Part shown: piece after piece, positions 1 through 55,606 of the stretch
How positions within the stretch are numbered: position 1 is the first letter of the stretch
Layout: every line of letters starts with the position of its first letter
NCBI GenBank assembly: GCA_025765615.1
Contig: JAIVFJ010000095.1
Coordinates: 124,001-188,000, forward strand
DNA length: 64,000 bases
Reading direction: 5' to 3'
DNA from: Zopfochytrium polystomum
Taxonomy: Eukaryota; Chytridiomycota; Chytridiomycetes; Chytridiales; Chytridiaceae
The notes under the pieces: model-generated
Databases searched by the model: none
What the model saw: the letters and a program-made list of their open reading frames with translations, nothing else
Told to the model about the DNA's origin: nothing
Translations under genes and position numbers: made by a program

Positions 1-4818
<4,818 letters not shown>

Positions 4819-30427: not shown

Positions 30428-30735
30428 TGTTATGAATCACCCTCTGGAAACCTCTGGAACCTTCTAGAGCATTCCTTCATGGAACCTTGTGGAACCTTCT
30501 GGAACCTTCTTTGCTTTCCTGACTTGTCTTGTTGTCATTGGTATCATTGGTATCATTGTATTACTAATTGCTCTTTCTGGAACTTTCTTTGAGTCTTGAC
30601 AAGGAAGACTCTCAAAAGGTATAAAAGGGGGATGGGGGACCTGTCCCATCCCTCAAGTGAATTATTGTTTCCAATACAATCATCACTCCTCTCAGTTCCT
30701 TGTCTGCCTTGTCCTGTCCTGCCCTGTTCCTGACA
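30428..30735 (+). repeat. Ty3-family LTR (copy A, 308 bp, one HSE unit)
   Basis: Begins TGTTATGAATC and ends CCTGACA, as do the LTRs of the full element at 48565. It carries one copy of the GGAAC/CTTCT block and a TATAAAAGG box. It shares three private variants (agagcattcc, ctttgagtc, ggaagactctc) with the inverted copy at 31575-31882 and differs from it by about one base, so the two are sister LTRs of one insertion. Preceded by ACCTG. Confidence 0.9.
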
Positions 30736-31574: not shown

Positions 31575-31882
31575 TGTCAGGAACAGGGCAGGACAGGACA
31601 AGGCAGACAAGGAACTGAGAGGAGTGATGATTGTATTGGAAACAATAATTCACTTGAGGGATGGGACAGGTCCCCCATCCCCCTTTTATACCTTTTGAGA
31701 GTCTTCCTTGTCAAGACTCAAAGAAAGTTCCAGAAAGAGCAATTAGTAATACAATGATACCAATGATACCAATGACAACAAGACAAGTCAGGAAAACAAA
31801 GAAGGTTCCAGAAGGTTCCACAAGGTTCCATGAAGGAATGCTCTAGAAGGTTCCAGAGGTTTCCAGAGGGTGATTCATAACA
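31575..31882 (-). repeat. Ty3-family LTR (copy B, 308 bp, inverted)
   Basis: Reverse complement of copy A at 30428-30735, about one base different. Its outgoing flank on the minus strand is ACCTG, identical to the five bases before copy A. Confidence 0.9.
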
Positions 31883-43313: not shown

Positions 43314-44058
43314 TTGCAGTTTTATGACAGGTACGCTTGTTTTTGCAAATAAAATCCCTAGACTTTATCACTGAGACCTCGGTGTAGTCTCACAGGTTTG
43401 CCAAGGAATGCCCCATGACTCTCTGGGCTGTCTTCCTTGTTTGGCTGGCTCAGCCCCATTTCTTGGTGATTCACTCCTCCCATTCTTTTCTTTACTATTT
43501 TATTTATTGTTTTGCTGTTTTGTATGTGTTTTCCCTCCTTTTCCCCTCCTCCCTCGTGATTCCAACCCTTTCCTATTTAAGCAGCTGCCCCCCATCTTGT
43601 TGAGTGTGTGAACCTGTGCCTGAAGTTGCCTTGCCTGCCCTTTTCTTCCTGACTGTATGTAGAGCTGGGGGTGGCAGTCCCCGGGTGTGTGACAGGAGGT
43701 TGAAGTCCTCTTGGCCATCATGGCAATGTGCTGGGTTCAAGCCCCAGTGCACTTCACCATTTCTGCATGCTGCTGCTTAGGTTGGACTGGGAAGGAGCCA
43801 CTTGGTGATGGAAAGATGGAGGGTAAATCTGTGGTGGTGCCTCTAGGTTCCTGTCAATACATCTAGTCAAATCCAGGTCTCTCAAGGTGATATGAATGAG
43901 CTGGCTGGTCAGGTACTGCTGCAGGAATGGTCTCTCAGGTATGCCCCCTTCTCCCTGTGTGTTGGCTCCTGTGCCCTCTGGTGGGCCTGGTCTCTGGGTT
44001 CAGACCCTCTTTCTCTCAGAGATTAATGCCTGTGACTGTCATGGTGCCACATTTGAGT
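43314..44058. other. Intergenic with a tRNA-like B-box fragment
   Basis: Near 43725-43765 the string gctgggttcaagccccag looks like a T arm and Pol III B box, but no complete cloverleaf could be drawn. Otherwise nothing recognised. Confidence 0.4.
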
Positions 44059-44471
44059 TGTAAACAGTCTACTCTGAGTGAGCGAGTGGAAGGAGTGAAT
44101 GAAGTGCAGATGTGTGTTTGAGGGTGGTCCTTCTCCCCAACTTGGAGAGAAAGGAGAAAAACTCTGTTATGAATTATTGAAACATGATGATGATATACAC
44201 ACTGTACTAGTTGCTAGGCAAGTGTGACCAGCACAGGGTAAAAACCTCTCCTATATTATCTGCTTGAGCAGAGGAGGAGGAAAACTGTTGACACTGAGTT
44301 TCTGTTCCACTTAATACTCTGATTATTTGTCAACAGCGCAAGCCAGGGCCCAGGTCTGCATTGGCAGTGGCTTGCTCTCCCATGGGCATCGTGAGAACGA
44401 TAACTGACAGTCACAATAGGTTTGGGTCTGTCTTGTGCCTCTTGCTGCTAACCAGTCAGTTCCGCCTAATA
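44059..44471 (-). repeat. 3' LTR of the copia element
   Basis: 413 bp, ends GTTTACA on the element strand. Its first bases read TATTAGGC instead of TGTTAGGC, so the terminal dinucleotide is mutated. A purine tract (gcagggggg on the element strand, 44472-44480) lies directly inside, as expected for second-strand priming. Confidence 0.88.
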
Positions 44472-47400
44472 CCCCCCTGCACGATGGCCATGGGTGTAGC
44501 ACCTGTTACGCAAAGCGTGCGTAAGCGTCTGAGGCTTCGACTGAAAGGGTGTTCGAAAGGTCCGAACAGGGTCGGAGGCCAAGTAGTGGGGCCAGTCACT
44601 GGTGCTGAGACGTCGAGAGTGGTTTTGTGAGAATGTCTGCAATCTGGTCGCTGGTTGGTACATAGCGTACAGTGATCTCTCCAGTGGCTACGCCTTGTCA
44701 GAGGAAATGAGCACGTATGTCAATGTGTTTTGTGCGAGCATGTGTGAGAGGGTTGAGCACTTGTGCAATTGCAGATTGATTGTCCTCGAGGATTGGTAGT
44801 GGCCGCTGTGTGGGGAGTTGCAACTCTGATAATACGGCTAGGAGCCATTGTGCTTCTTGGAAGGCTTCAGAAAGTGAGTAGTTTTCTGCTTCTGTGGAAG
44901 ATAGCGATACTCGATGTTGTTTGCATGAGACCCAAGACGGCGGCGCCCATGAGGAAGAAGACATATCCAGTGTGCGATGTGTGGTCTCCAGGTTCACCCC
45001 CATAGGATGCATCAGCGTATGCAGCTGGTTCAAGGGTGTCATTTGTGAAGAGCCGTAGCGGCTTGTGGCTTTGCCTGTAGAATATCCGTGGCCCGAGGTG
45101 CCTCGGAGGTAACGAAGCAGGCGGTGGAGTGCATTGCGATGGCACTGGCGTGGCTTCAGTTGGAACTGGGAGAGTACATTTGGTGCAAATGCGATATCTG
45201 GTCGAGTTTGTGTTGCGAGGTATTGAAATTTCATGAGTGTGGATCGATACCAGCTTAAGTCGCTCTCGCTAAGTTCAATTGACGTTTTGTCAAGCATAAA
45301 GGTGATAGACATTGGAGTTGATGCAATATCGAGGTCGTCCCACATTTTCTCTTCAGTGAGAATTGTCCTGGTGTATTTGTCTAGGCCCATCCAAATGCCT
45401 TCGGAGTTGTGCTCCAGGTGGATGCAAATCACTTGGATGACAGTGGTTTCCTCAAGAGACATGCTGTACTCAGCGCGAAAAGCATCCTCAATTTTTGCGA
45501 CAAGAGCTGGTGTGTTGGCCATGACATTGATGTCGTTGACAAAAACAAAGATGATTTCAAACGTTTGTTGCTGAGAGTCTACTCGAAAGAAGGGGCAGGG
45601 CTCAGCAAGAGATTGATTGAAGCCGAGTTTCTTGACAATGAACTTGCGAAGGGTCAGGAACCAGTTTCGTCCAGATTGGTGGATTCCATAGAGGCTCTTG
45701 AGGAGTTTGCAAAATAGTTTCTTTCCATCTGGAGTGAATCGCTCGTGGCCTTTTGGTGGGTGCATGTAGATGACTTCTTTGAGGAAAGCGTACAGGTAGG
45801 CTGTGTTGACATCCATGCTGTGGTACTCGAGGTCAAAAGCAAGGCTGATTGCAATGAGCAGTCGGATGGCCTGGATCCGGACGACATGAGAAAAGGTGTC
45901 TGCATAGTCGATGCCTTCGCGTTGAGTGTTTCCACATGTGACAAGACGAGCTTTCCATTGCTTCAGCCAGCCAAAGGGGTCGAGCTTGTAGGCATAAACC
46001 CATTTGCAGAACATTGCGCGTTCGCCAGGAGGAAGAACTGACCATTCCCAGACCTTGTGCTCGTCCATGAGAGAGTGAAGCTCCTCAAGCTCAGATGCAG
46101 TCCATTCTTCGTTATAGTCTGATGCGTGGGCTTCCTTGTGGGAACGTGGCACTGGTGGGAGTTGTGATTGGTGGATTGGTTATTTAGGGAAGTGCTTTGG
46201 GAAGTGTGGTTCTGGTTTAGCTGATGCAAGGTAGAGTTGCAAGAGATGGCAAGTGATTGTTCGATTTGCAAGTAGCTTGCGAAGTCCAGTTGGTACATCT
46301 TTGATTTTGACAATGACCGATGGTGGAAGTGGTGATTCAATGACAGGTTCCAGTTCAGTGTTGATGGATGCTGCTATGCGGTCTGCTGTTGGAGCTAGGC
46401 TCTCTTCAGGTTCGTCTTCATCTTCGCCCAGGACAACAGCGAATGTGTCAGGGTTCCAACCATAGTCGTCATCGTCATTATCGTCTTCCATATGTTGGGG
46501 AAGAGTTGGAGGTTCATCTGAGGAGTTTGATGATGATGATGGCGGCTGTCCCCCCCTGGGAGCCTGGCGCAGTTGCTGGCGAGTACGAGTGGAGGGAGCA
46601 CCGTCAGGGGGAGAGTTGGATAATCGACGGTAAGAGTCAAGTGGTGGCTCAACAGGCTCAAAAGAAGGAGAGTCATCAGTTTCAGGAAAATCTGTAAAAT
46701 CATCAGAGAGAGAAGTTAAGAAATCAGAATTAAGAGATTGAAGCTTAGCATCACTGCAGACAAGGCCAGGAAAGACATGCTCTTGCAAGTTATAGTGGTG
46801 TGTCCAAAGAATAGCCTGTGCAGTAAAGTCGTAGCTGAGGGCAATAGACTCACTGTATGTGTCAAAACCCAAGAAGAGTCCAAGTGAGGCCCGAGGAGAG
46901 AACTTGGTCTTGTGTGAGTTTGCAGGTTCTGTATACTCATTGTTGAGTGTGACAATGAGGCAGCCAAAAATTTCAAGGTGGTGTAGGTTGGGTTTTTGGC
47001 CTTGGTAATATTCAAATGGAATTTGACCAGTGTGAGTGTGTTGCACACGATTGCACAGGAATGAAGCATGGCGTATTGCATAGGGCCAGAAGAACCGTGG
47101 AAGCTGGGCTTCGATCAGGAGACAGGAAGCAATGTGGGTGATGACCTTGATGGCATTTTCTGCAACACCATCACCCTCCTTGACATAAGGGACAGAACGC
47201 TGGAAGACAATGGGAGGTTGGTGGTTGATACAGTAGGCCTCAAATTGCTGAGTGTTAAGACCGAGGTTGTCTGCCCATACAAATAGAGTTCGACGAGTGG
47301 GGAAGAGTTGCTCTTCAAAATCAATGCGATCAATTATCCTTTGAGTGACGCCTGCTGTGCGAGCGACAGTGTTGACCCTAGTATAGCCTGTGGCACAGTC

Positions 47401-48564
47401 AACAATAACTTCAAAGTAGTTGGAACCATCAAGAGAACATGTACTGATCTTTCCAGCTTGGTCGGTACACAGCATCTGCAGTAAAATCAAAATGAGGTTT
47501 GGCCATGAGGTGTTGCTGGCACATCTTTGCCATATCACAAATGAGGCAAGGCTCGCGTGTTGTTGGTGGTGGAGCAGGAGCACCGTCAACATCACCAGAC
47601 TTGAGAGTGTCATGTACTTGCTCTTGGTGGATGTGGCCAAAACGTCGGTGCCATAGGTCGCGTGCAGTTGCTGGTGATGTGTAGGCAATGGGCTCAACTG
47701 AAATTTTCCTCTGCGCAGCTGGGTGCTGGACTGGGATGAGATAGTAAAGGCCGTCATGTCGTTTGCCAATCTTGATGCCCGTTGTGATGCGAGTGTAGCA
47801 AGATCAAGAAGAAAGACAGAATCTTGAGTGAATAGCATCCCAGCAGTTGGGTCTTGGAGGACATGCGACACAGAGAGGAGCAGTTCCTTGAGTGATGGGA
47901 CATGAAGCACATTGCGGAGCACCACATCAAAACCAGGAAAAGTGAGAGTGACAGATCCAATTCCTTTGATGCGGCATTCATGGTCATCTGCTAGGCGGGC
48001 ATGGCGTTCAGTTTCAAATTGTTGGTACTCAGTGAATTGTTCCCGTTGTGGGATCATTGTGGGTACAGCTCCAGAATCGATCATGTACAGAAGAGAGGCT
48101 ATGCCTGCGTGTGACGCGCTCACTGTTGCAGTGCTCACAAAGAAGTAGAAGCAAGTGGGACTGTTTATTTGAGAAGAAGAAGAAACAGATGGCCCTCCTG
48201 TAGCAGGTTGAGGGTGAAATCCAGAGAAAGGAACAAGAGTTGCTTGTGGTACAGCCACAGTTGCTGAGGCTGAAGCATGGTTTGGTTGAGCTGGTGTGAA
48301 GTGCTGCGCTTGGAGCCTGGCTGAGATGGCATTGGCTCGGCGCATGTGCAGGCAGTGCTCAGATTTGTGCGTGTGTGCATTGGTGGCCAAGTTTGGAATC
48401 TCTGCACAGAACTCTCACCCAGTGCCTTCAACTCTTCCAAGACATCGATGGATTGAAGTAGCCTTTGGCTCCAGCCTATGGGTGACTCCTGGCTTGCGGC
48501 GGTCACGACAGTCCCTTTCCATGTGGCGAATGTATGCCTTGTGGTAACCACACCAGTAGCGTGA
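44472..48564 (-). pseudogene. Ty1/copia pol (protease-integrase-RT-RNase H), decayed
   Basis: Element strand, high to low coordinate: zinc-knuckle remnant (YWCGYHKAYIRHMERDC, about 48545), protease (MIDSGAVPTMIP), a GAG-pre-integrase block (DLWHRRFGHI...CLICDMAKMC) found only out of frame at 47480-47660, integrase with D, D, E residues (DCATGY, WADNLGL, VAENAIK), RT (VNTAYLYAFLKEVIYMHPPKG, SLYGIHQSGRNW) and copia RNase H (KHIDIRAHFL). The order protease, integrase, RT defines Ty1/copia. The RT active site reads FVND where YVDD is expected, losing a catalytic Asp. A TGA at 44698-44700 truncates RNase H before the ADILTKPL motif. Several frameshifts confirm it is inactive. Confidence 0.9.
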
Positions 48565-48918
48565 TGTTATGAATCACCCTCTGGAAACCTCTGGAACCTT
48601 CTAGAACATTCCTTCATGGAACCTTCTGGAACCTTCTGGAACCTTCTAGAACATTCCTTCATGGAACCTTGTGGAACCTTCTGGAACCTTCTTTGCTTTC
48701 CTGACTTGTCTTGTTGTCATTGGTATCATTGGTATCATTGTATTACTAATTGCTCTTTCTGGAACTTTCTTGGAGTCTTGACAAGGAACACTCTCAAAAA
48801 GGTATAAAAGGGGGATGGGGGACCTGTCCCATCCCTCAAGTGAATTATTGTTTCCAATACAATCATCACTCCTCTCAGTTCCTTGTCTGCCTTGTCCTGT
48901 CCTGCCCTGTTCCTGACA
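48565..48918 (+). repeat. 5' LTR of the full-length Ty3 chromovirus (354 bp, two HSE units)
   Basis: TG...CA ends. U3 holds arrays of GGAAC/CTTCT-type pentamers: 4 at 48593-48612, 8 at 48618-48657, 6 (one imperfect) at 48663-48692, and 3 near 48756-48770. TATAAAA starts at 48803. The likely RNA start, aagtgaattat (48838-48848), is 35 bp downstream. R-U5 is then about 81 nt. Outside the extra repeat unit it appears identical to the 3' LTR. Confidence 0.95.
48593..48692 (+). promoter_or_regulatory. Heat-shock-element array in the LTR
   Basis: Contiguous inverted nGAAn/nTTCn pentamers, the binding pattern of trimeric heat-shock factor, in blocks of 4, 8 and 6. A perfect functional element needs three. 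The intervening TTCAT pentamers keep the 5-bp register. HSF binding is inferred from the consensus. Confidence 0.8.
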
Positions 48919-48920
48919 TC

Positions 48921-48931
48921 ATAATTCACTT
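48921..48931 (+). promoter_or_regulatory. Primer-binding site complementary to the element's own RNA 5' end
   Basis: ataattcactt, two bases inside the 5' LTR, is the exact reverse complement of aagtgaattat at 48838-48848. The same two 11-mers occur in the truncated copy at 41538-43313. This is the self-priming arrangement known from Tf1 of fission yeast (an 11-nt self-primer) and the sushi group; no tRNA 3' end is expected to pair. Confidence 0.8.
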
Positions 48932-48958
48932 CACCCTCTCCTACTACTCTCTGCCATC

Positions 48959-49882
48959 ATGTCTGACCCAAACAACACCTTCCCTGATGCAACTGCCTTC
49001 CAAGCCTTGATGGACCAATTACAAGCCCTTTCAAGACAGACACACCAACTTCAAGAACAAGTCCTTCACCAGCAGCACCAGCTTCAACAACAACTTCACC
49101 AACAAGAACATCAAGCTCTTCCCCTGCCCCAAGCCAACCAAGCAAGAGAGCCCAAGGTTCCCAGCCCTGACAAGTTCACTGGGCTGGCCAAAGACCTTAG
49201 GAACTTTATGGCCACTGTGGAGAATGTCATCCTTCTCCAACCTTCAAGATTTCCCAGTGAGCAAGTCAAGGTTCTTTTCACAAGCACCCTCCTGTCTGGT
49301 CAAGCTCAATCATGGTACAGATCTCTCCCAAGCACACCCACCACCCTGCAAGAGCTCTGGGAGGGGCTGGAGGCTACCTTTGGTGACCCCTACGCATCTT
49401 GGACAGCAAGATCCAAGCTCAAGCATATCAAGCAAGGAAAGCAATCTTGTGTGGCCTACACCAACCAATTCAAGCAACTAGCCAGAGACTCTGGATACAA
49501 TGATGCAGCTCTGATGGAGCTGTACCATGATGGTCTCCATGAGTCTATCCAAGACATGCTCTCCCAGTCTCTGCACATCCCTGAGACCTTGGAAGAGTAC
49601 ATTCTCCTTGCCATCAAGATTGACAACAGACTCTACTCCAAGAGGCTGAAGCAAAGACAAGTAGGAACTACATCAAGACCTACCCCAGTTCCTCAAGCTC
49701 TTACAGTTCCTGAACCCATGCAAGTGGATGCAGTTGAGACACTTCCTAAGGGTCCTCTGAGCCAAGAGGAGAAAACAAGGAGGGCCCAGCAGGGACTGTG
49801 TTTTTACTGTGGCTCCAAGGAGCATGCTGTCAAGGACTGCCCAAGGAAGAAGCACCCAAACTCCCAGGTCCAGGCTCACTGA
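48959..49882 (+). CDS. Ty3 chromovirus Gag
   Basis: 307 codons. It opens MSDPNNTFPDATAFQALMDQ and is Gln-rich, followed by a retrotransposon gag core (KDLRNFMATVENVI, WEGLEATFGDPYASWTAR, YTNQFKQLARDSGYND) and a CCHC zinc knuckle CFYCGSKEHAVKDC near the end. It forms the particle that packages element RNA. It stops soon after the knuckle because of two extra bases near 49850 relative to the truncated sister copy, where Gag runs straight into protease. Confidence 0.92.
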   Translation: MSDPNNTFPDATAFQALMDQLQALSRQTHQLQEQVLHQQHQLQQQLHQQEHQALPLPQANQAREPKVPSPDKFTGLAKDLRNFMATVENVILLQPSRFPSEQVKVLFTSTLLSGQAQSWYRSLPSTPTTLQELWEGLEATFGDPYASWTARSKLKHIKQGKQSCVAYTNQFKQLARDSGYNDAALMELYHDGLHESIQDMLSQSLHIPETLEEYILLAIKIDNRLYSKRLKQRQVGTTSRPTPVPQALTVPEPMQVDAVETLPKGPLSQEEKTRRAQQGLCFYCGSKEHAVKDCPRKKHPNSQVQAH

Positions 49883-52800
49883 GGGGCAATTCCCTGGACC
49901 CTCCTCCAAGCTGCCCCTGTTTCATCACCACCACCAGCACCACAAACACCTCAGATTCCAAGCCCCACCAACTCACCATGGATGTCAAGATTCAACTCTC
50001 ACCCAAGTCAACCATCACAACCAAGGCCCTTATAGACTCTGGATCATCCTGCAACATCATTGATGCCACCCTTGCCAAGTCTTGTGCCATTCCTACGATC
50101 AAGAAATCCACACCCCTCAAGGTCCACTTTGCCAATCATGCTCTGTTCAAGGAAATCAGCCATGAAACCAAGCTAAACCTCCACATCCAAGACTTTCCAC
50201 CATCCATGGTCAATCTGGAAGTATTGGATCTTGGCTCACCCACATTCTCTGTCATCCTGGGATTACCATGGCTGCAAGCCCAGAACCCTGCCATTGATTG
50301 GGTCACTGGTCAAGTCCAACCTCCACCAATCGGAACAGTCACCCAAAACTCAAGTCAAGCCCCCAAGTCTCATGCTCTCAAGCCCTTGATTCAAGATTCA
50401 CAGCCAGCCAAGACTCAAGTTCCACAGTTCACAGTTCACAGTCAAGATTCAAGTAGAGCTCATAGAGCTCACAGTCATGGCCATGACTCTTGTTCACAGA
50501 ACCCACAGTCAAAGATTCAAGTACCACAGTTCACAGTCCACATTCAAGATTCAAGTTCCACAGCTCACAGTCTTTGCCAAGAACAGAACTCTCAGTCAAA
50601 GATTCAAGAATCACAGTTCCCAGTCAAGAATTCAAGCCCCACTGCTGAGGAGCACAACAACCTGGACCCATCAGACCTTTTGCTGGCATCCAAGCTACCA
50701 AAAGAATATCTCCCTTATGCTGATGTGTTTTCCAAGACCAAGGCAGACCTGCTACCAGCTCAGAGGCCTTATGACTGTGAAATCCCACTCAAGGATGAAA
50801 CTTGCAGCCCACCTTTCAAGCCACTGTACCACCTCTCTCCACCAGAAGCCAAGCCCCTCCAAGAATACATTGAAGAAATGCTGAACAAGGGATTCATCCA
50901 ACCTTCCAAGTCACCAGCTGGAGCTCCCATCTTTTTTGTCAAGAAGAAGGATGGGGGACTGAGACCCTGTGTGGACTACAGAGATCTCAATGAGATGACA
51001 GTCAAGAACCGCTATCCACTGCCTCTCATCTCTGAATTACTGGACAAACTGAGCCATGCAAGGATATTTTCCAAGATTGACCTCAGAGGTGCCTACAATT
51101 TGGTCAGAATTAAGCCCCAGGATCAATGGAAGACTGCCTTCAGATGCAAATACGGTCACTTTGAGTACTTGGTCATGCCCTTTGGACCTACCAATGCTCC
51201 AGCTATTTTCCAAGGCATGATGAATGACATCTTCAGGGATATTCTGGACCTTTTTGTCATTGTCTACCTGGATGATATCCTGGTATTTTCATCTGACACT
51301 GCAAGCCATATGGGACATGTCAAGACTGTCTTGGAGAGACTCAGACAGCATCACCTCTATGCAAAGCTGGAGAAGTGTGAATTCCACAAGACCTCCATTG
51401 AGTTTTTGGGGTTCATTGTGTCTGACAAAGGGATCTCCATGGCACCAGACAAGATCCAAACTATTCTTGAATGGAAGGCTCCAAATTCCATCAAGGATGT
51501 TCAAAGCTTCCTTGGATTTTGCAACTTCTACAGAACCTTCATTGCCAACTATTCTGCCATAGCCAAGCCTCTCACTGATCTCACCAAGAAGACCACCAAG
51601 TTTGAATGGACCCCAGCAGCAGAGCAAGCCTGGCTAGCTCTTAAGACAGCAACCACAAGTGCACCACTCCTTAAGCATGTGGATCCCTTGCTTCCCTTCA
51701 CCTTGGAAACTGATGCCTCAGACTATGCCCTTGGCGCTGTTCTGTCCCAGCCAAGCTCTCAGGACCCCTCTGCTCCTCTGCACCCAGTGGCATATTACTC
51801 CAGGAAGCTGAACAGTGCTGAGTGTAACTACACAGTCCATGACAAGGAGTTGCTTGCAATTGTGGAAGCATTCAAATTCTGGAGACACTACTTGGCTGGT
51901 TCTAAAGGCATCTCTGTCTATTCTGATCACAAGAACCTCACCTTCTTCAGGGCAAGGAGGTTGCTCAAGCAGAGGCATGCCAGGTGGGCTGAACTGCTCT
52001 CTGAGTATGACTTTAAGCTGTGCTATTCTCCTGGCCACCTTAACACTGTGGCTGATGCCCTGTCAAGAAGAACAGACCTTGCACCTGAAGGGGGAGATGG
52101 TTTCACCCCACCATCCAAGACACACCTTTCATTGCTTCCTGACAGTGTGTGGGCCCATGCTATTTCCAAGGACCCCAAGCCTCACAAGATTCAAATCAGC
52201 CAAGAAGAGGAAAAACTTGAGATACTCAAGACAAGGCATGATGCAGCAACAGCTGGACACCCAGGAGAGCACAAGACATATGAGCTTGTTTCCAGAGACT
52301 TCTACTGGCCAGGCATGAGGAAGTACATCAAGAACTATGTCAGCAGCTGTGAAACCTGTCAAAGAAACAAATCCAGCAGACACAAGCCCTATGGACTTCT
52401 GGAGCCCCTCCCAATTGCCATCAGCCCTTGGTCATCAATATCCATGGACTTCATTGTGAAACTGCCCCCATCCCATGGATTTGACTCTATCCTTGTTGTC
52501 ATCTGCAGAAGGACAAAGTTGGCCCATTTCATCCCCTGCACTGAGAATATAGATGCACAAGGAACAGCAGACCTGTTTTTGCAGCACATATTCAGGCTCC
52601 ATGGGCTGCCTCAGTCAATCATCAGTGACAGAGGACCACAGTTCAGATCTCAATTTTGGAAAGCACTCACAGCTGCCCTTGGAATCAAGTCTCAACTGTC
52701 AACTGCTTATCACCCTCAGACTGATGGACAAACAGAAAGAACAAACCAGACTCTGGAGCAGTATTTGAGGTGCTATGTCAGCTATCAACAGGATGATTGG

Positions 52801-53517
52801 CCCACCCTCCTTCCACTGGCAGAATTTGCTCTCAACAATTCTCTCCACTCAAGCACCCAGCTATCTCCTTTCTTTGCAACCTATGGCTTCAATCCAAGAG
52901 GAGATCTTCTGGGACAAGAGACCCTATCCAATGTCCAAGCTCCTGCTGCGGCTTCACACTTACATAAGCTCAAGATCATCAACTCCTTCCTGGACTCCAC
53001 CCTGAAGCAAGCCCAAGAAGATGCCTCAAGATTTGCCAACACTCACAGAATGGACCATGACCTTGCTGTGGGTCAGCAAGTTTGGCTTCTGAGGAAGAAC
53101 TTGCAGACCAAAAGACCAAGTCCCAAGCTAGACAACCTCAAGTTGGGTCCTTTCAAGATCTTGGAGCAAATCAATCCAGTCACCTTCAAGCTGGATCTCC
53201 CTGCATCCATGAAGATCCACCCAGTTTTCCATGTCAGCCTTTTAGAGAAGTTTGTGGCCAATTCCATTCCAGGCAGAGTTGTTCCTCCTCCTCCTCCAGT
53301 TGATGTAGAAGGTGAAGAGGAATTTGAGGTTGAACAAATCTTGGATGCCAAGTGGTTTGGAAGGACACTCAAGTTCCTTGTTAAGTGGAAAGGTTACTCA
53401 GATGCTGACAACACCTGGGAACCTGAGTCAAACCTCACTCACTGCCAAGACCTTCTGCTCAAGTTCAAGACCAGGTACCCCACCAAGTTGCAGAAGAGGC
53501 CTAAAAGGGGGAGATGA
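49851..53517 (+). CDS. Ty3 chromovirus Pol (protease, RT, RNase H, integrase, chromodomain)
   Basis: Long frame, -1 relative to Gag, no proper start codon of its own. Protease ALIDSGSSCNIID (50026 onward). RT with LRPCVDYRDLN, a FSKIDLRGAYNLVRI block and active site YLDD at 51265-51276. RNase H with TLETDASDYALGAVL. Integrase zinc finger (H, H, CETC) near 52240-52370, catalytic SMDFIVKLPP, SDRGPQFRSQFW and TDGQTERTNQTLEQY. C-terminal chromodomain EVEQILDAKWF, KFLVKWKGYSDADNTWEPE at about 53320-53420, which in chromoviruses guides insertion to marked chromatin. All catalytic residues look intact. The stop codon (53515-53517) abuts the 3' LTR and lies in the polypurine tract. Confidence 0.95.
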
Positions 53518-53916
53518 TGTTATGAATCACCCTCTGGAAACCTCTGGAACCTTCTAGAACATTCCTTCATGGAACCTTCTGGAACCTTCTGGAACCTTCT
53601 AGAACATTCCTTCATGGAACCTTCTGGAACCTTCTGGAACCTTCTAGAACATTCCTTCATGGAACCTTGTGGAACCTTCTGGAACCTTCTTTGCTTTCCT
53701 GACTTGTCTTGTTGTCATTGGTATCATTGGTATCATTGTATTACTAATTGCTCTTTCTGGAACTTTCTTGGAGTCTTGACAAGGAACACTCTCAAAAAGG
53801 TATAAAAGGGGGATGGGGGACCTGTCCCATCCCTCAAGTGAATTATTGTTTCCAATACAATCATCACTCCTCTCAGTTCCTTGTCTGCCTTGTCCTGTCC
53901 TGCCCTGTTCCTGACA
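53518..53916 (+). repeat. 3' LTR of the Ty3 chromovirus (399 bp, three HSE units)
   Basis: Same as the 5' LTR plus one extra 45-bp unit. Preceded by polypurine tract aaaagggggagatga. Target duplication CGTGA (48560-48564) and CGTGG (53917-53921), four of five bases matching. Confidence 0.95.
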
Positions 53917-55195
53917 CGTGGCCTATCCCCACGACGAGGGGAGCGTGAGCGGTTGTTGTTGTCATGGATGTTGTGACCCCTGTTGTCATTGTTCCTGTAG
54001 CTGCTTCCTTGGCGATTGTTTCGTTCTGCTCGCTCATTGCGACCTCCTTGGATGTGGTCACTTCAGTGGCGTCTACCTTCGCAATCGTCATGGTTGTCAC
54101 AGTGGTTGTTGCCCACTTGACGCCAGCTGCGGTTGTTGCGGCGGTTCCTGCGGTCTTCCTCTTCATCTGCCTCAAGGGCAGTCAAGACAGCAGTAAGCTC
54201 ATCCATATTGTTGAAGCAGGCATCATTGTTTCGAAGTGCTGCCACAAATGGTCCAAAACGACTATGAGCTGAGCCGCATGTGAGATGTGTGCGCAGTTGC
54301 TCTGCACTTTGCGTACAAACTCATCAAGTCTGTTCTGGCCATGACCTTGGATGAATAGTTGCTGAAGTCGTTCAATCTCACGCACATAAGAATTCAGATC
54401 TTGGTAAAGCAAGGGGCTTTGAGTGTCTGTGCGTAGCTGCAGCCCTGACCATCTGTTTTCAAAATCATCAATCGAGCTGGATGGGAGGGCATTGTTGAAT
54501 GTTCGGCGAATGGCAGTCACACAGTCTTGATGGAGGTGAATGTTGCGGCAGAGTTCAAACAAGTGCGAGGTCTCTGGAAGCCTGATCATCAAAGCTGACC
54601 GAGCTGTTTCGTTCTCCTTGATGAAGGCGGCATGCATCTTCAGCATGGCATTCATGAACTCTGATGAAGTTATGATGTGATGCTGAATCAGGTACTTGAC
54701 AGTTGCTTCAACAGCCACAACTGGTCCAGCATTAGCTTGCTCAGCAACAGTCGGTACATAGAGATAGTTTGGTGAGAGTGTTTCACCAGCCTTCGGCTCT
54801 GGTGTACTGTGCCCACCATTTCGACAGTGCAACCAGAAACGCCATCCGTCCCACTGATCCTTGTGTAGGTGTGTGACGTATGTATGGTAGGCCTCCTCGT
54901 TGCAGAAAGGTCTCTCAAGAGGGAGTAGGTCCGTCCGCGTTAGGTCCTGAATTCCCTTTTCACCAATAACCTTGATCTGAAGGTTGCTAATAAAGTCATT
55001 GAATTCTGTCAGTTCTTGGCAGTGAACATGCCAACAAACGAGTTTAGGTTGGACAACATTGCGTTGTGCGTAGTGATGATTCTGTTGCAGGAGAGAAAGT
55101 TGAGATATGCTGATTCTGTTTGTTGGAGGTGGTAGAGAGTGTTTTTCGGAGCTAGAATCTGTGGTTGATGCAGCCAGATAGCTTGCACGCTGATG
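53917..55195 (-). pseudogene. Copia gag, split from its pol by the Ty3 insertion
   Basis: Element strand from about 54920: FCNEEAYHTYVTHLH, HCRNGGHSTPEPKAGE, TVKYLIQHHIITSSEFMNAM, RRTFNNALPSSSIDDF, FVRKVQSNCAHISH, QHFETMMPAS. This is a copia-type gag core, followed by Arg-rich low-complexity sequence with several frame breaks up to the Ty3 edge. Removing the Ty3 element plus one target copy brings the basic region directly before the zinc knuckle at 48564, in frame. Confidence 0.8.
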
Positions 55196-55606
55196 TGTAA
55201 ACAGTCTACTCTGAGTGAGTGAGTGGAAGGAGTGAATGAAGTGGAGATGTGTGTTTGTGGGTGGTCCTTCTCCCCAACTTGGAGAGAAAGAGAAAAAAAC
55301 TCTGTTATGAATTATTGATACATGATAATGATATTGCTGTAATGGTTGCTAGGCAAGCATGACTGGCACAGGGTAAAAACCTCTGCTATATAATCTGCTT
55401 GAGCACAGGAGGAAAACTGTTTACATCAAATTTCCGTTCCACTCAATACTTGGAGTATTTGTCATCAGCACAAGCCAGCCCCCAGGTCTGCATTGGCAGT
55501 GGCTCACTCTCCCATGGGCATCGTGAGAACGATAACTGACAGTCACAATAGGTTCAGGTCCGTCTTGTGCCTCTTGCTGCTAACCAGCAGTCAGTCCAGC
55601 CTAACA
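55196..55606 (-). repeat. 5' LTR of the copia element
   Basis: 411 bp, begins TGTTAGGC and ends GTTTACA on the element strand. It differs from the 3' LTR at many sites and small indels, so this insertion is much older than the nested Ty3 element. The outer flanks (catac and tgagt) do not match, so no target duplication is preserved. Confidence 0.9.

What the first reader, a model, noticed from the sequence alone, without database searches (positions are those of the whole stretch)
48565..53916. Chromovirus LTR built from long perfect heat-shock-element arrays
In U3 of the Ty3 LTR, nGAAn and nTTCn pentamers alternate without a break for 4, 8 and (with one imperfect unit) 6 repeats, plus a 3-unit element nearer the TATA box: about 21 pentamers in under 200 bp. 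Three in a row make a functional HSF site. Heat-activated LTRs are known (ONSEN, a plant copia), but I know of no Ty3 chromovirus with arrays this dense. A young, nearly intact element with such a promoter would be a heat- or stress-triggered mutagen in this fungus.
Basis: partly seen in the sequence, partly recalled or inferred. Interest (0 to 1): 0.86.

Follow-up and report, generated by a model that had tools for sequence, protein, structure and literature searches.

The report
Fungal retrotransposon with heat-shock promoter arrays
A young, very numerous jumping gene in a chytrid-like fungus carries long runs of the DNA motif that the cell's heat-shock regulator recognises, and almost none of the CpG sites that methylation could use to silence it, so it looks built to wake up under heat; this is predicted from sequence and has not been measured.

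Summary
The element spans 48565-53916; U3 of its 5' LTR holds perfect alternating nGAAn/nTTCn runs of 4, 8, 4 (6 with one imperfect unit) and 3 pentamers, and none of 5000 shuffles has more than one run of 3. It is an intact-looking Ty3 chromovirus of a chytrid-like fungus. The family is large and young: 1812 exact LTR R copies, 9 of 11 LTR pairs without a substitution. All 20 fetched 6-unit sites, of 25 listed, lie in its LTRs. Three-unit sites number 18,034 against 1,760 for a reversed control. Host HSF has the canonical helix; 3 of 12 HSP70 upstream stretches carry weaker elements, none a perfect run of 3. HSF-driven heat induction is the best explanation but untested, and the evidence for selection on the array is weak (p=0.03 against spacers, 0.21 against other U3 sites). 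New variant of a known kind.

The parts
48560..48564 (.). left target-site flank CGTGA
   Evidence: right flank is CGTGG, so 4 of 5 match; 9 of 11 LTR pairs examined have exact 5-bp duplications
48565..48918 (+). 5' LTR (354 bp, TG...CA)
48593..48612 (+). HSE run, 4 perfect pentamers
48618..48657 (+). HSE run, 8 perfect pentamers
48663..48692 (+). HSE run, 6 pentamers with one imperfect (perfect 48673-48692)
48756..48770 (+). proximal HSE, 3 perfect pentamers, outside the tandem array
48803..48810 (+). TATA box (TATAAAAG)
   Evidence: function inferred
48838..48848 (+). AAGTGAATTAT, predicted start of R and self-primer
   Evidence: 11-nt complement of the sequence just after the LTR; start inferred
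48921..48931 (+). primer-binding site ATAATTCACTT for self-priming
   Evidence: function inferred
48959..49882 (+). gag ORF
   Evidence: Retrotrans_gag E 1.5e-12
49855..49861 (+). CCCAAAC heptamer in the -1 frameshift register
   Evidence: no unusual downstream RNA fold (z 0.26)
49750..53517 (+). pol open frame (stop to stop, 1255 codons, -1 to gag)
49963..50595 (+). protease region
   Evidence: Asp_protease_2, RVP_2
50788..51597 (+). reverse transcriptase
   Evidence: RVT_1 E 8.9e-40
51598..52179 (+). RNase H region
52180..53100 (+). integrase zinc-binding and core
53323..53475 (+). chromodomain
   Evidence: Chromo E 2.9e-17; residues 75-125 of window:53101-53514
53503..53517 (+). polypurine tract next to the 3' LTR
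   Evidence: an exact 26-base PPT/LTR junction occurs 603 times in the genome
53518..53916 (+). 3' LTR (399 bp, one extra 45-bp HSE unit)
53546..53690 (+). HSE array of the 3' LTR: runs of 4, 8, 8, 4
53754..53768 (+). proximal 3-unit HSE of the 3' LTR
53917..53921 (.). right target-site flank CGTGG

Best explanation
The element is a recently and massively amplified chromovirus whose U3 is a heat-shock promoter. Host HSF trimers are expected to bind the pentamer arrays about 70-245 bp upstream of the predicted start, recruit transcription from the TATA box, and yield a genomic RNA that makes Gag and, by a -1 frameshift, Gag-Pol. The RNA primes its own reverse transcription through an 11-nt complement, and a chromodomain integrase inserts the copy with a 5-bp duplication. 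Copies gain or lose 10- or 45-bp HSE units without losing the 5-bp register, so HSF dose can vary between lineages. Near-total loss of CpG would leave the promoter nothing for CpG methylation to act on. Shown: the anatomy, the HSE excess, the copy number, the youth, the CpG loss, and the HSF helix. Inferred: HSF binding, heat induction, frameshifting, self-priming, evasion of silencing.
For: HSE runs and null tests. 6-unit pattern 2188 vs 0, 3-unit pattern 18,034 vs 1,760 for reversed controls. 20 of 20 fetched 6-unit sites (of 25 clusters in the capped list, contigs C1-C5) lie in this LTR. In an unselected 200-kb sample, 14 of 14 runs of 4 or more units lie in it. On contig C1, + strand, 70 of 78 listed three-unit sites are within 400 bp of an exact LTR R copy (places). 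All 61 LTR copies outside the HSE-chosen loci keep a run of at least 3, and 58 of 61 keep two runs of at least 4. In those copies array cores vary at 1 of 30 sites and array spacers at 5 of 20 (p=0.03). 78 of 79 parsed arrays have lengths that differ by multiples of 5. HSF helix FVRQLNMYGFHKV in 5 of 8 loci read. HSP70 upstream stretches: 3 of 12 have four pentamers with one core mismatch, against 4 of 500 background windows. CpG: LTR 0 vs 16.3 expected, internal 7 vs 261.2, sample without the family observed/expected 1.02.
Against: No transcript, ChIP or heat data. The array is a tandem repeat, so its pentamers arose together. Cores are not clearly more constrained than other U3 sites (1 of 30 vs 21 of 162, p=0.21). 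The proximal HSE varies (2 of 9 core sites) and is broken in the older copies L067 and L069. None of 12 HSP70 upstream stretches has a perfect 3-unit run, and 9 of 12 have no four-pentamer match with fewer than 2 mismatches, so the host's own heat promoters look weaker than, or different from, the LTR. Short-array LTRs were recently active too.
Confidence: 0.65

Rival explanations
1. The array is an ordinary minisatellite inside U3. A 10-bp unit that happens to read as GAA/TTC was amplified by slippage during reverse transcription or recombination, and HSF plays no part in the element's success.
For: Tandem Repeats Finder reports 10- and 45-bp units. Array length varies (47 to 149 bp). The proximal HSE is not kept in older copies. 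The selection test is weak. LTRs with few units are about as young as those with many.
Against: Only 0.27% of random 10-mer units would give unbroken HSEs. A separate 3-unit HSE lies outside the array. Within the array, cores vary less than the spacers next to them. The most diverged copy, L069, keeps a 6-unit run in its first block, but it was found through an HSE pattern, so this is biased.
Confidence: 0.2
2. HSF-type factors do bind the array, but the natural trigger is not heat: a developmental stage (zoospore, germination), oxidative stress, or an HSF paralogue. Another factor, such as a TEA-domain protein at the CATTCC sites or factors at the inverted CCAAT boxes, may contribute.
For: 14 HSF-domain matches in the genome, so several HSF-type genes. 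The 5' LTR also has ATTGG or CCAAT at three places, one TTACTAA and two CATTCC inside the array (the factors that these names stand for are recalled, not from a call).
Against: Short motifs such as these are expected by chance in an LTR. TTACTAA is changed in L069 (read). Nothing here separates heat from other HSF inputs.
Confidence: 0.13
3. The CpG-free composition and foreign codon use reflect recent arrival by horizontal transfer from a CpG-poor host rather than loss of CpG in this fungus; the HSEs then evolved in, and for, another host's HSF.
For: Arg codons are AGR in gag (14 of 14) and pol (45 of 46), while two host frames use CGN (22 of 22 and 55 of 57). The family is very young. The closest relatives by identity are unnamed environmental proteins (Gag 68%; RT 73%). 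The best-scoring named RT hits include frogs, mostly over part of the query (best 120 of 4534 listed, 8000 candidates scored).
Against: TG and CA excess (1.53 and 1.42) fits deamination of methylated CpG. The copia in the same window is also CpG-poor (LTRs 0.20, body 0.59), so CpG loss in mobile elements looks local. An older, diverged copy exists (L069). Frog hits (49-61%) are less alike than the environmental ones.
Confidence: 0.12

Closest known systems
ONSEN/COPIA78 and related Brassicaceae heat-responsive copia elements (PMC3907296 and PMC5059998, passages read)
   Same: HSF-type nGAAn cluster in the LTR; LTR without CG sites.
   Different: [quoted passage not shown] lyrata TERESTRA) and HSFA2 dependence shown. 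Here the element is a Ty3 chromovirus in a chytrid-like fungus, with 11, 19 or 27 pentamers in perfect runs in the three common LTR lengths and 1812 exact LTR R copies; CHG sites are present (14 in the 5' LTR); HSF dependence is not shown.
Cryptococcus TCN3 and TCN12 (PMC12810828, passages read)
   Same: Fungal LTR elements with putative HSEs, mobilised at 37 C.
   Different: Two putative HSEs in TCN3 and one in TCN12, against dense repeated arrays here; there mobility was measured, here not. That paper says heat-shock activation of TEs through host machinery remains undescribed in fungi.
MAGGY and Pyret of Magnaporthe oryzae (PMC3978060, passages read)
   Same: Fungal LTR elements whose loci are reported unstable under stress; MAGGY under heat only at 3 h. 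That MAGGY is a chromovirus is recalled.
   Different: The terms heat shock element and HSE do not occur in the main text of that paper.
Caenorhabditis HSE-bearing Helitrons (PMC6927752, passages read)
   Same: A mobile element family supplies most of the genome's HSEs (61.4% there; here about nine tenths of 3-unit sites are in excess of control).
   Different: DNA transposon in animals with HSF-1 binding data, some copies with over 100 HSEs; here an LTR element whose HSEs sit in its own promoter, without binding data.
Tf1/Tj1 self-priming elements of fission yeast (PMC4600332, passages read)
   Same: Primer site just after the LTR complementary to the predicted 5' end of the RNA; Tf2-1-like SH3 domain here (Pfam).
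   Different: Heat control of Tf1/Tj1 was not looked up. Here gag and pol are in different frames with a CCCAAAC heptamer.

Membership tests
Ty3 chromovirus | PR-RT-RNaseH-IN order with chromodomain at the IN end | tested here: met
Ty3 chromovirus | TG...CA LTRs and 5-bp target duplication | tested here: met
   exact 5 bp in 9 of 11 LTR pairs examined; this element 4 of 5 bases; one pair (L047/L048) without; a further fetched element (L049/L050) had no parsed 5' LTR and is not counted
Tf1-type self-priming group | primer site complementary to the RNA 5' end instead of a tRNA | tested here: inconclusive
   11-nt complement present and kept in 77 of 80 LTR copies; a tRNA complement was not tested and priming cannot be tested here
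HSF-activated LTR element (ONSEN type) | at least three adjacent nGAAn motifs in U3 | tested here: met
HSF-activated LTR element (ONSEN type) | host HSF able to read nGAAn | tested here: met
   by sequence only: 14 domain matches, helix FVRQLNMYGFHKV in 5 of 8 loci read, 3 without a match to the search string
HSF-activated LTR element (ONSEN type) | HSF binds the LTR | not testable with these tools
   needs EMSA or ChIP
HSF-activated LTR element (ONSEN type) | heat-induced transcript and new copies | not testable with these tools
   needs RNA and copy-number data
HSF-activated LTR element (ONSEN type) | LTR free of CG sites | tested here: met
   0 CpG in both LTRs; 73 of 80 LTR copies have none, 6 have one, 1 has two
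HSF-activated LTR element (ONSEN type) | LTR free of CHG sites | tested here: not met
   14 CHG in the 5' LTR
ONSEN family proper (Ty1/copia) | copia-type pol | tested here: not met
   Ty3-type domains, RVT_1 and not RVT_2

The most novel reading that the evidence does not exclude
A chytrid-like chromovirus has converged on ONSEN's double strategy (an HSF promoter plus a CpG-free body that methylation cannot mark) and by its burst now holds about nine tenths of the genome's canonical HSEs. Heat then not only wakes the element but draws much of the cell's HSF to LTRs, making them a sink and a source of new heat-regulated genes. The CpG loss would also be a fossil of CpG methylation of mobile elements in a group (early-diverging fungi) described as nearly free of 5mC.
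Probability: 0.28. Interest if true: 0.85.

Novelty: new variant of a known kind. Interest (0 to 1): 0.66.

Why it matters
Heat-shock activation of mobile elements through host machinery is said to be shown in plants and animals but undescribed in fungi (PMC12810828, passages). This family gives a sharp test with its own controls: length variants of the array, 603 exact PPT/3'LTR junctions, and many LTR copies to compare. If HSF drives it, heat episodes could time bursts of insertion in a fungal genome and seed ready-made heat switches next to genes. The CpG-free body makes it testable whether escape from methylation and capture of a stress pathway tend to evolve together.

Tried and rejected
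Hairpin role of the array: DNA fold z -1.75, 11 of 200 shuffles fold as well; not pursued. A structured frameshift stimulator after CCCAAAC: z 0.26; none seen. Relatives in viral contigs: none with Gag or with the integrase piece. A second HSE family with other spacers: a 4-unit pattern with W/H spacers gave 4 matches at 3 places against 0 control, so no large family with those spacers; other spacer types were not searched apart. Copia of the same window as a second HSE element: no run of 3 in its LTRs. Adding the loci picked by the HSE pattern gives p=0.009 for array cores against spacers (2 of 30 vs 8 of 20); I do not rely on it, because those loci were chosen for perfect cores. Even the 61 copies used include loci chosen by likeness to L069, itself found by an HSE pattern. 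L027 carries a diverged R-U5 piece without an array; not followed. Literature: 10 searches over the held library only; their listings showed no chytrid or other fungal Ty3 element with HSE arrays and no CpG-free fungal retrotransposon. Passages of PMC12543289 and PMC7862722 gave nothing on CpG loss in chytrid elements. Papers outside that library were not searched.
Full report
OBSERVATION. Its LTRs are 354 and 399 bp, begin TGTTATG and end CCTGACA. A scan for strictly alternating nGAAn/nTTCn pentamers gives runs of 4, 8, 4 and 3 in the 5' LTR and 4, 8, 8, 4 and 3 in the 3' LTR. In the 5' LTR the breaks are single imperfect pentamers (TTCAT twice, CTTGT once), so the 5-bp register is unbroken from 48593 to 48692. 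In the whole 64-kb window one run of 3 (3769-3783) lies outside this LTR family; the other runs lie in this element's LTRs or in three further LTR copies.

CHANCE. None of 5000 dinucleotide shuffles of U3 had more than one run of 3. Because the array is a 10-bp repeat inside a 45-bp repeat, that test alone overstates the case. A random 10-mer repeated in tandem would read as unbroken HSE in 0.27% of cases, and the proximal 3-unit HSE outside the array appears in 14 of 5000 shuffles of its 145-bp region. Genome-wide the 6-unit pattern has 2188 sites and its reversed control 0. The 3-unit pattern has 18,034 on both strands and its control 1,760.

WHERE THE HSEs ARE. The capped list shows 25 clusters of 6-unit sites on contigs C1 to C5. 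I fetched 20, and all 20 are LTRs of this family. Three more were already known to be its LTRs (C1:90417, C1:91169, C2:376337), and two were left unfetched as the likely partner LTRs of fetched ones (C3:39428, C4:102926). In an unselected sample of 20 stretches of 10 kb, 14 of 14 runs of 4 or more lie in this family's LTRs; of 8 runs of 3, 3 lie in stretches without the family; the reversed control has 6 runs of 3. On contig C1, + strand, 70 of 78 listed three-unit sites are within 400 bp of an exact copy of the LTR's R segment, and four of the other eight form pairs with the LTR's 35-bp spacing (places). I infer that the family carries about nine tenths of the canonical HSEs of the genome.

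WHAT THE ELEMENT IS. Pfam finds Gag, aspartic protease, RT, RNase H, integrase, a Tf2-1-like SH3 domain and a chromodomain. Gag (48959-49882) and pol (open to 53517) are both uninterrupted, and pol is in the -1 frame with a CCCAAAC heptamer in the right register but no notable RNA structure behind it. Eleven bases just after the 5' LTR are the exact complement of AAGTGAATTAT at 48838, which starts 35 bp after the TATA box. This is the arrangement described for the self-priming elements Tf1 and Tj1 (PMC4600332, passages), and it predicts the RNA start. On that basis the arrays lie at about -245 to -146 and the proximal HSE at about -82 to -68. Exact 5-bp duplications flank 9 of 11 LTR pairs; this element has 4 of 5 matching bases, and one pair has none. 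The element sits in an older copia whose LTRs are 90.4% alike (369 of 408) and have no HSE run of 3.

HOST. A host gene beside it (histidine-specific, ergothioneine-type methyltransferase) has its best named relatives in Borealophlyctis, Quaeritorhiza, Chytriomyces and Blyttiomyces (57, 54, 55 and 55%), so I call the host chytrid-like; this rests on one gene. The genome is 80.2 Mb in 761 contigs. Some HSF loci recur on two contigs (L011/L012, L014/L015), so haplotypes may be partly separate and copy counts inflated.

ABUNDANCE AND AGE. Exact copies: 1812 of a 31-base R segment, 619 of the LTR/PBS junction, 603 of the PPT/LTR junction. By subtraction about 590 LTRs lack an exact junction and may be solo or damaged. 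Of 886 RT candidates 150 were scored and listed; their scores lie between 141.3 and 142.8 bits, and most have an open frame of 1255 codons. Being the best-scoring 150, they say nothing about weaker families. Of 11 LTR pairs compared (9 from that list, this element, and one internally deleted copy), 9 have no substitution and 2 have one each.

ARRAY EVOLUTION. Arrays measure 59, 69, 104, 114, 124 or 149 bp in 78 of 79 parsed copies, one is 47, and one copy of 80 could not be parsed. Runs reach 12 perfect units (L074). Unequal pairs (this element; L039/L040) show that units are gained or lost between the two LTRs of one element. Among 61 LTRs outside the loci chosen by the HSE pattern (40 distinct; 19 of 80 left out), array cores vary at 1 of 30 sites, array spacers at 5 of 20 (Fisher p=0.03), other U3 sites at 21 of 162 (p=0.21 against cores), and proximal cores at 2 of 9. 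This is weak support for constraint on the array and none for the proximal site. Part of the 61 were picked by likeness to L069, which an HSE pattern had found.

HOST HSF AND HEAT GENES. The HSF domain gives 14 matches. In 8 loci read, 5 have the helix FVRQLNMYGFHKV and 3 did not match the search string; that this is the canonical recognition helix is recalled. Of 58 HSP70 matches I took 1 kb around the start of 12. None has a perfect run of 3; three (L101, L103, L104) have four pentamers with one core mismatch, against 4 of 500 background windows. Several of the 12 are near-copies of each other (L097-L100; L105/L106), so they are not 12 independent promoters, and the upstream stretch need not be the promoter where introns intervene. 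So HSE-like sites stand before some host heat genes, but the LTR's are stronger on paper than those in any HSP70 stretch read.

CpG LOSS. The LTR has 0 CpG (16.3 expected) and the internal region 7 (261.2 expected), while 170 kb of sample without the family has observed/expected 1.02. TG and CA are in excess (1.53, 1.42). Arg is AGR in 59 of 60 gag and pol codons but CGN in 77 of 79 codons of two host frames. In five other copies, internal stretches of 1.6 to 4.1 kb have 2 to 9 CpG where 90 to 233 are expected, and 73 of 80 LTRs have none. The copia is intermediate (LTRs 0.20, body 0.59). DNA-methylase-family matches exist in the genome (19), type not determined. This looks like old deamination of methylated CpG in mobile elements, kept compatible with working proteins by synonymous change; no methylation was measured. 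It is notable because a 2026 review describes early-diverging fungi, chytrids among them, as having near-undetectable 5mC (PMC13297926, passages). ONSEN's promoter is likewise free of CG sites (PMC3907296, abstract and passages), though it also lacks CHG sites, which this LTR has.

MECHANISM AND JUDGEMENT. The most likely reading is a heat-shock promoter serving a chromovirus that has recently swept the genome. The anatomy, excess and youth are shown; binding, induction and escape from silencing are inferred. The main rival is a minisatellite that only resembles an HSE array. Both predict much the same sequence, and only the core-versus-spacer test, the proximal HSE and the host HSF favour the first. 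Close parallels are known (ONSEN and TERESTRA in plants, TCN3/TCN12 in Cryptococcus, Helitrons in Caenorhabditis), so I file it as a new variant of a known kind: the longest perfect HSE runs among the LTR elements I read about, in a Ty3 element of a chytrid-like fungus, joined with a CpG-free body. That I found no such report rests on the ten searches named under Tried and rejected.

Noticed in passing
48565-53916: The whole element is almost CpG-free (7 internal CpG, LTR 0) with TG/CA excess and nearly AGR-only arginine codons, in a genome with normal CpG.
   Followed up: yes
G000:C18:205530-218816, G000:C6:362980-372518, G000:C11:160740-168286: Head-to-tail repeats of the element or of shortened forms at fixed spacing (4160, 3171, 4952 bp), seen in the hit lists.
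   Followed up: no
L029:5387-8656, L003:543-1500: Internally deleted copies lacking most of pol but keeping the element's ends, perhaps non-autonomous derivatives moved in trans.
   Followed up: partly
49855-49861: CCCAAAC in -1 register before the gag stop, likely frameshift site; no unusual RNA fold downstream.
   Followed up: partly
44054-55588, minus strand: Older copia element (LTR pair 90.4% identical) interrupted by the chromovirus; also CpG-poor but without HSE runs.
   Followed up: partly
L027:5600-5910: A diverged R-U5 piece like this family's (78% over 84 bp) lies beside sequence that by eye resembles the copia leader; possible chimeric or nested insertion.
   Followed up: no
30428-30735 (+) and 31575-31882 (-): Two LTRs of the family in opposite orientation 840 bp apart, sharing a core change (A to G at reference LTR position 87).
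   Followed up: no
L036:4249-4956 and L024:1-708: Other stretches of the unselected sample without any CpG in 354-bp windows, not identified.
   Followed up: no
G000:C7:485101, C459:28671, C655:3016: Three partial HSF-domain matches with nearly the same score and one internal stop each, perhaps a duplicated pseudogene.
   Followed up: no
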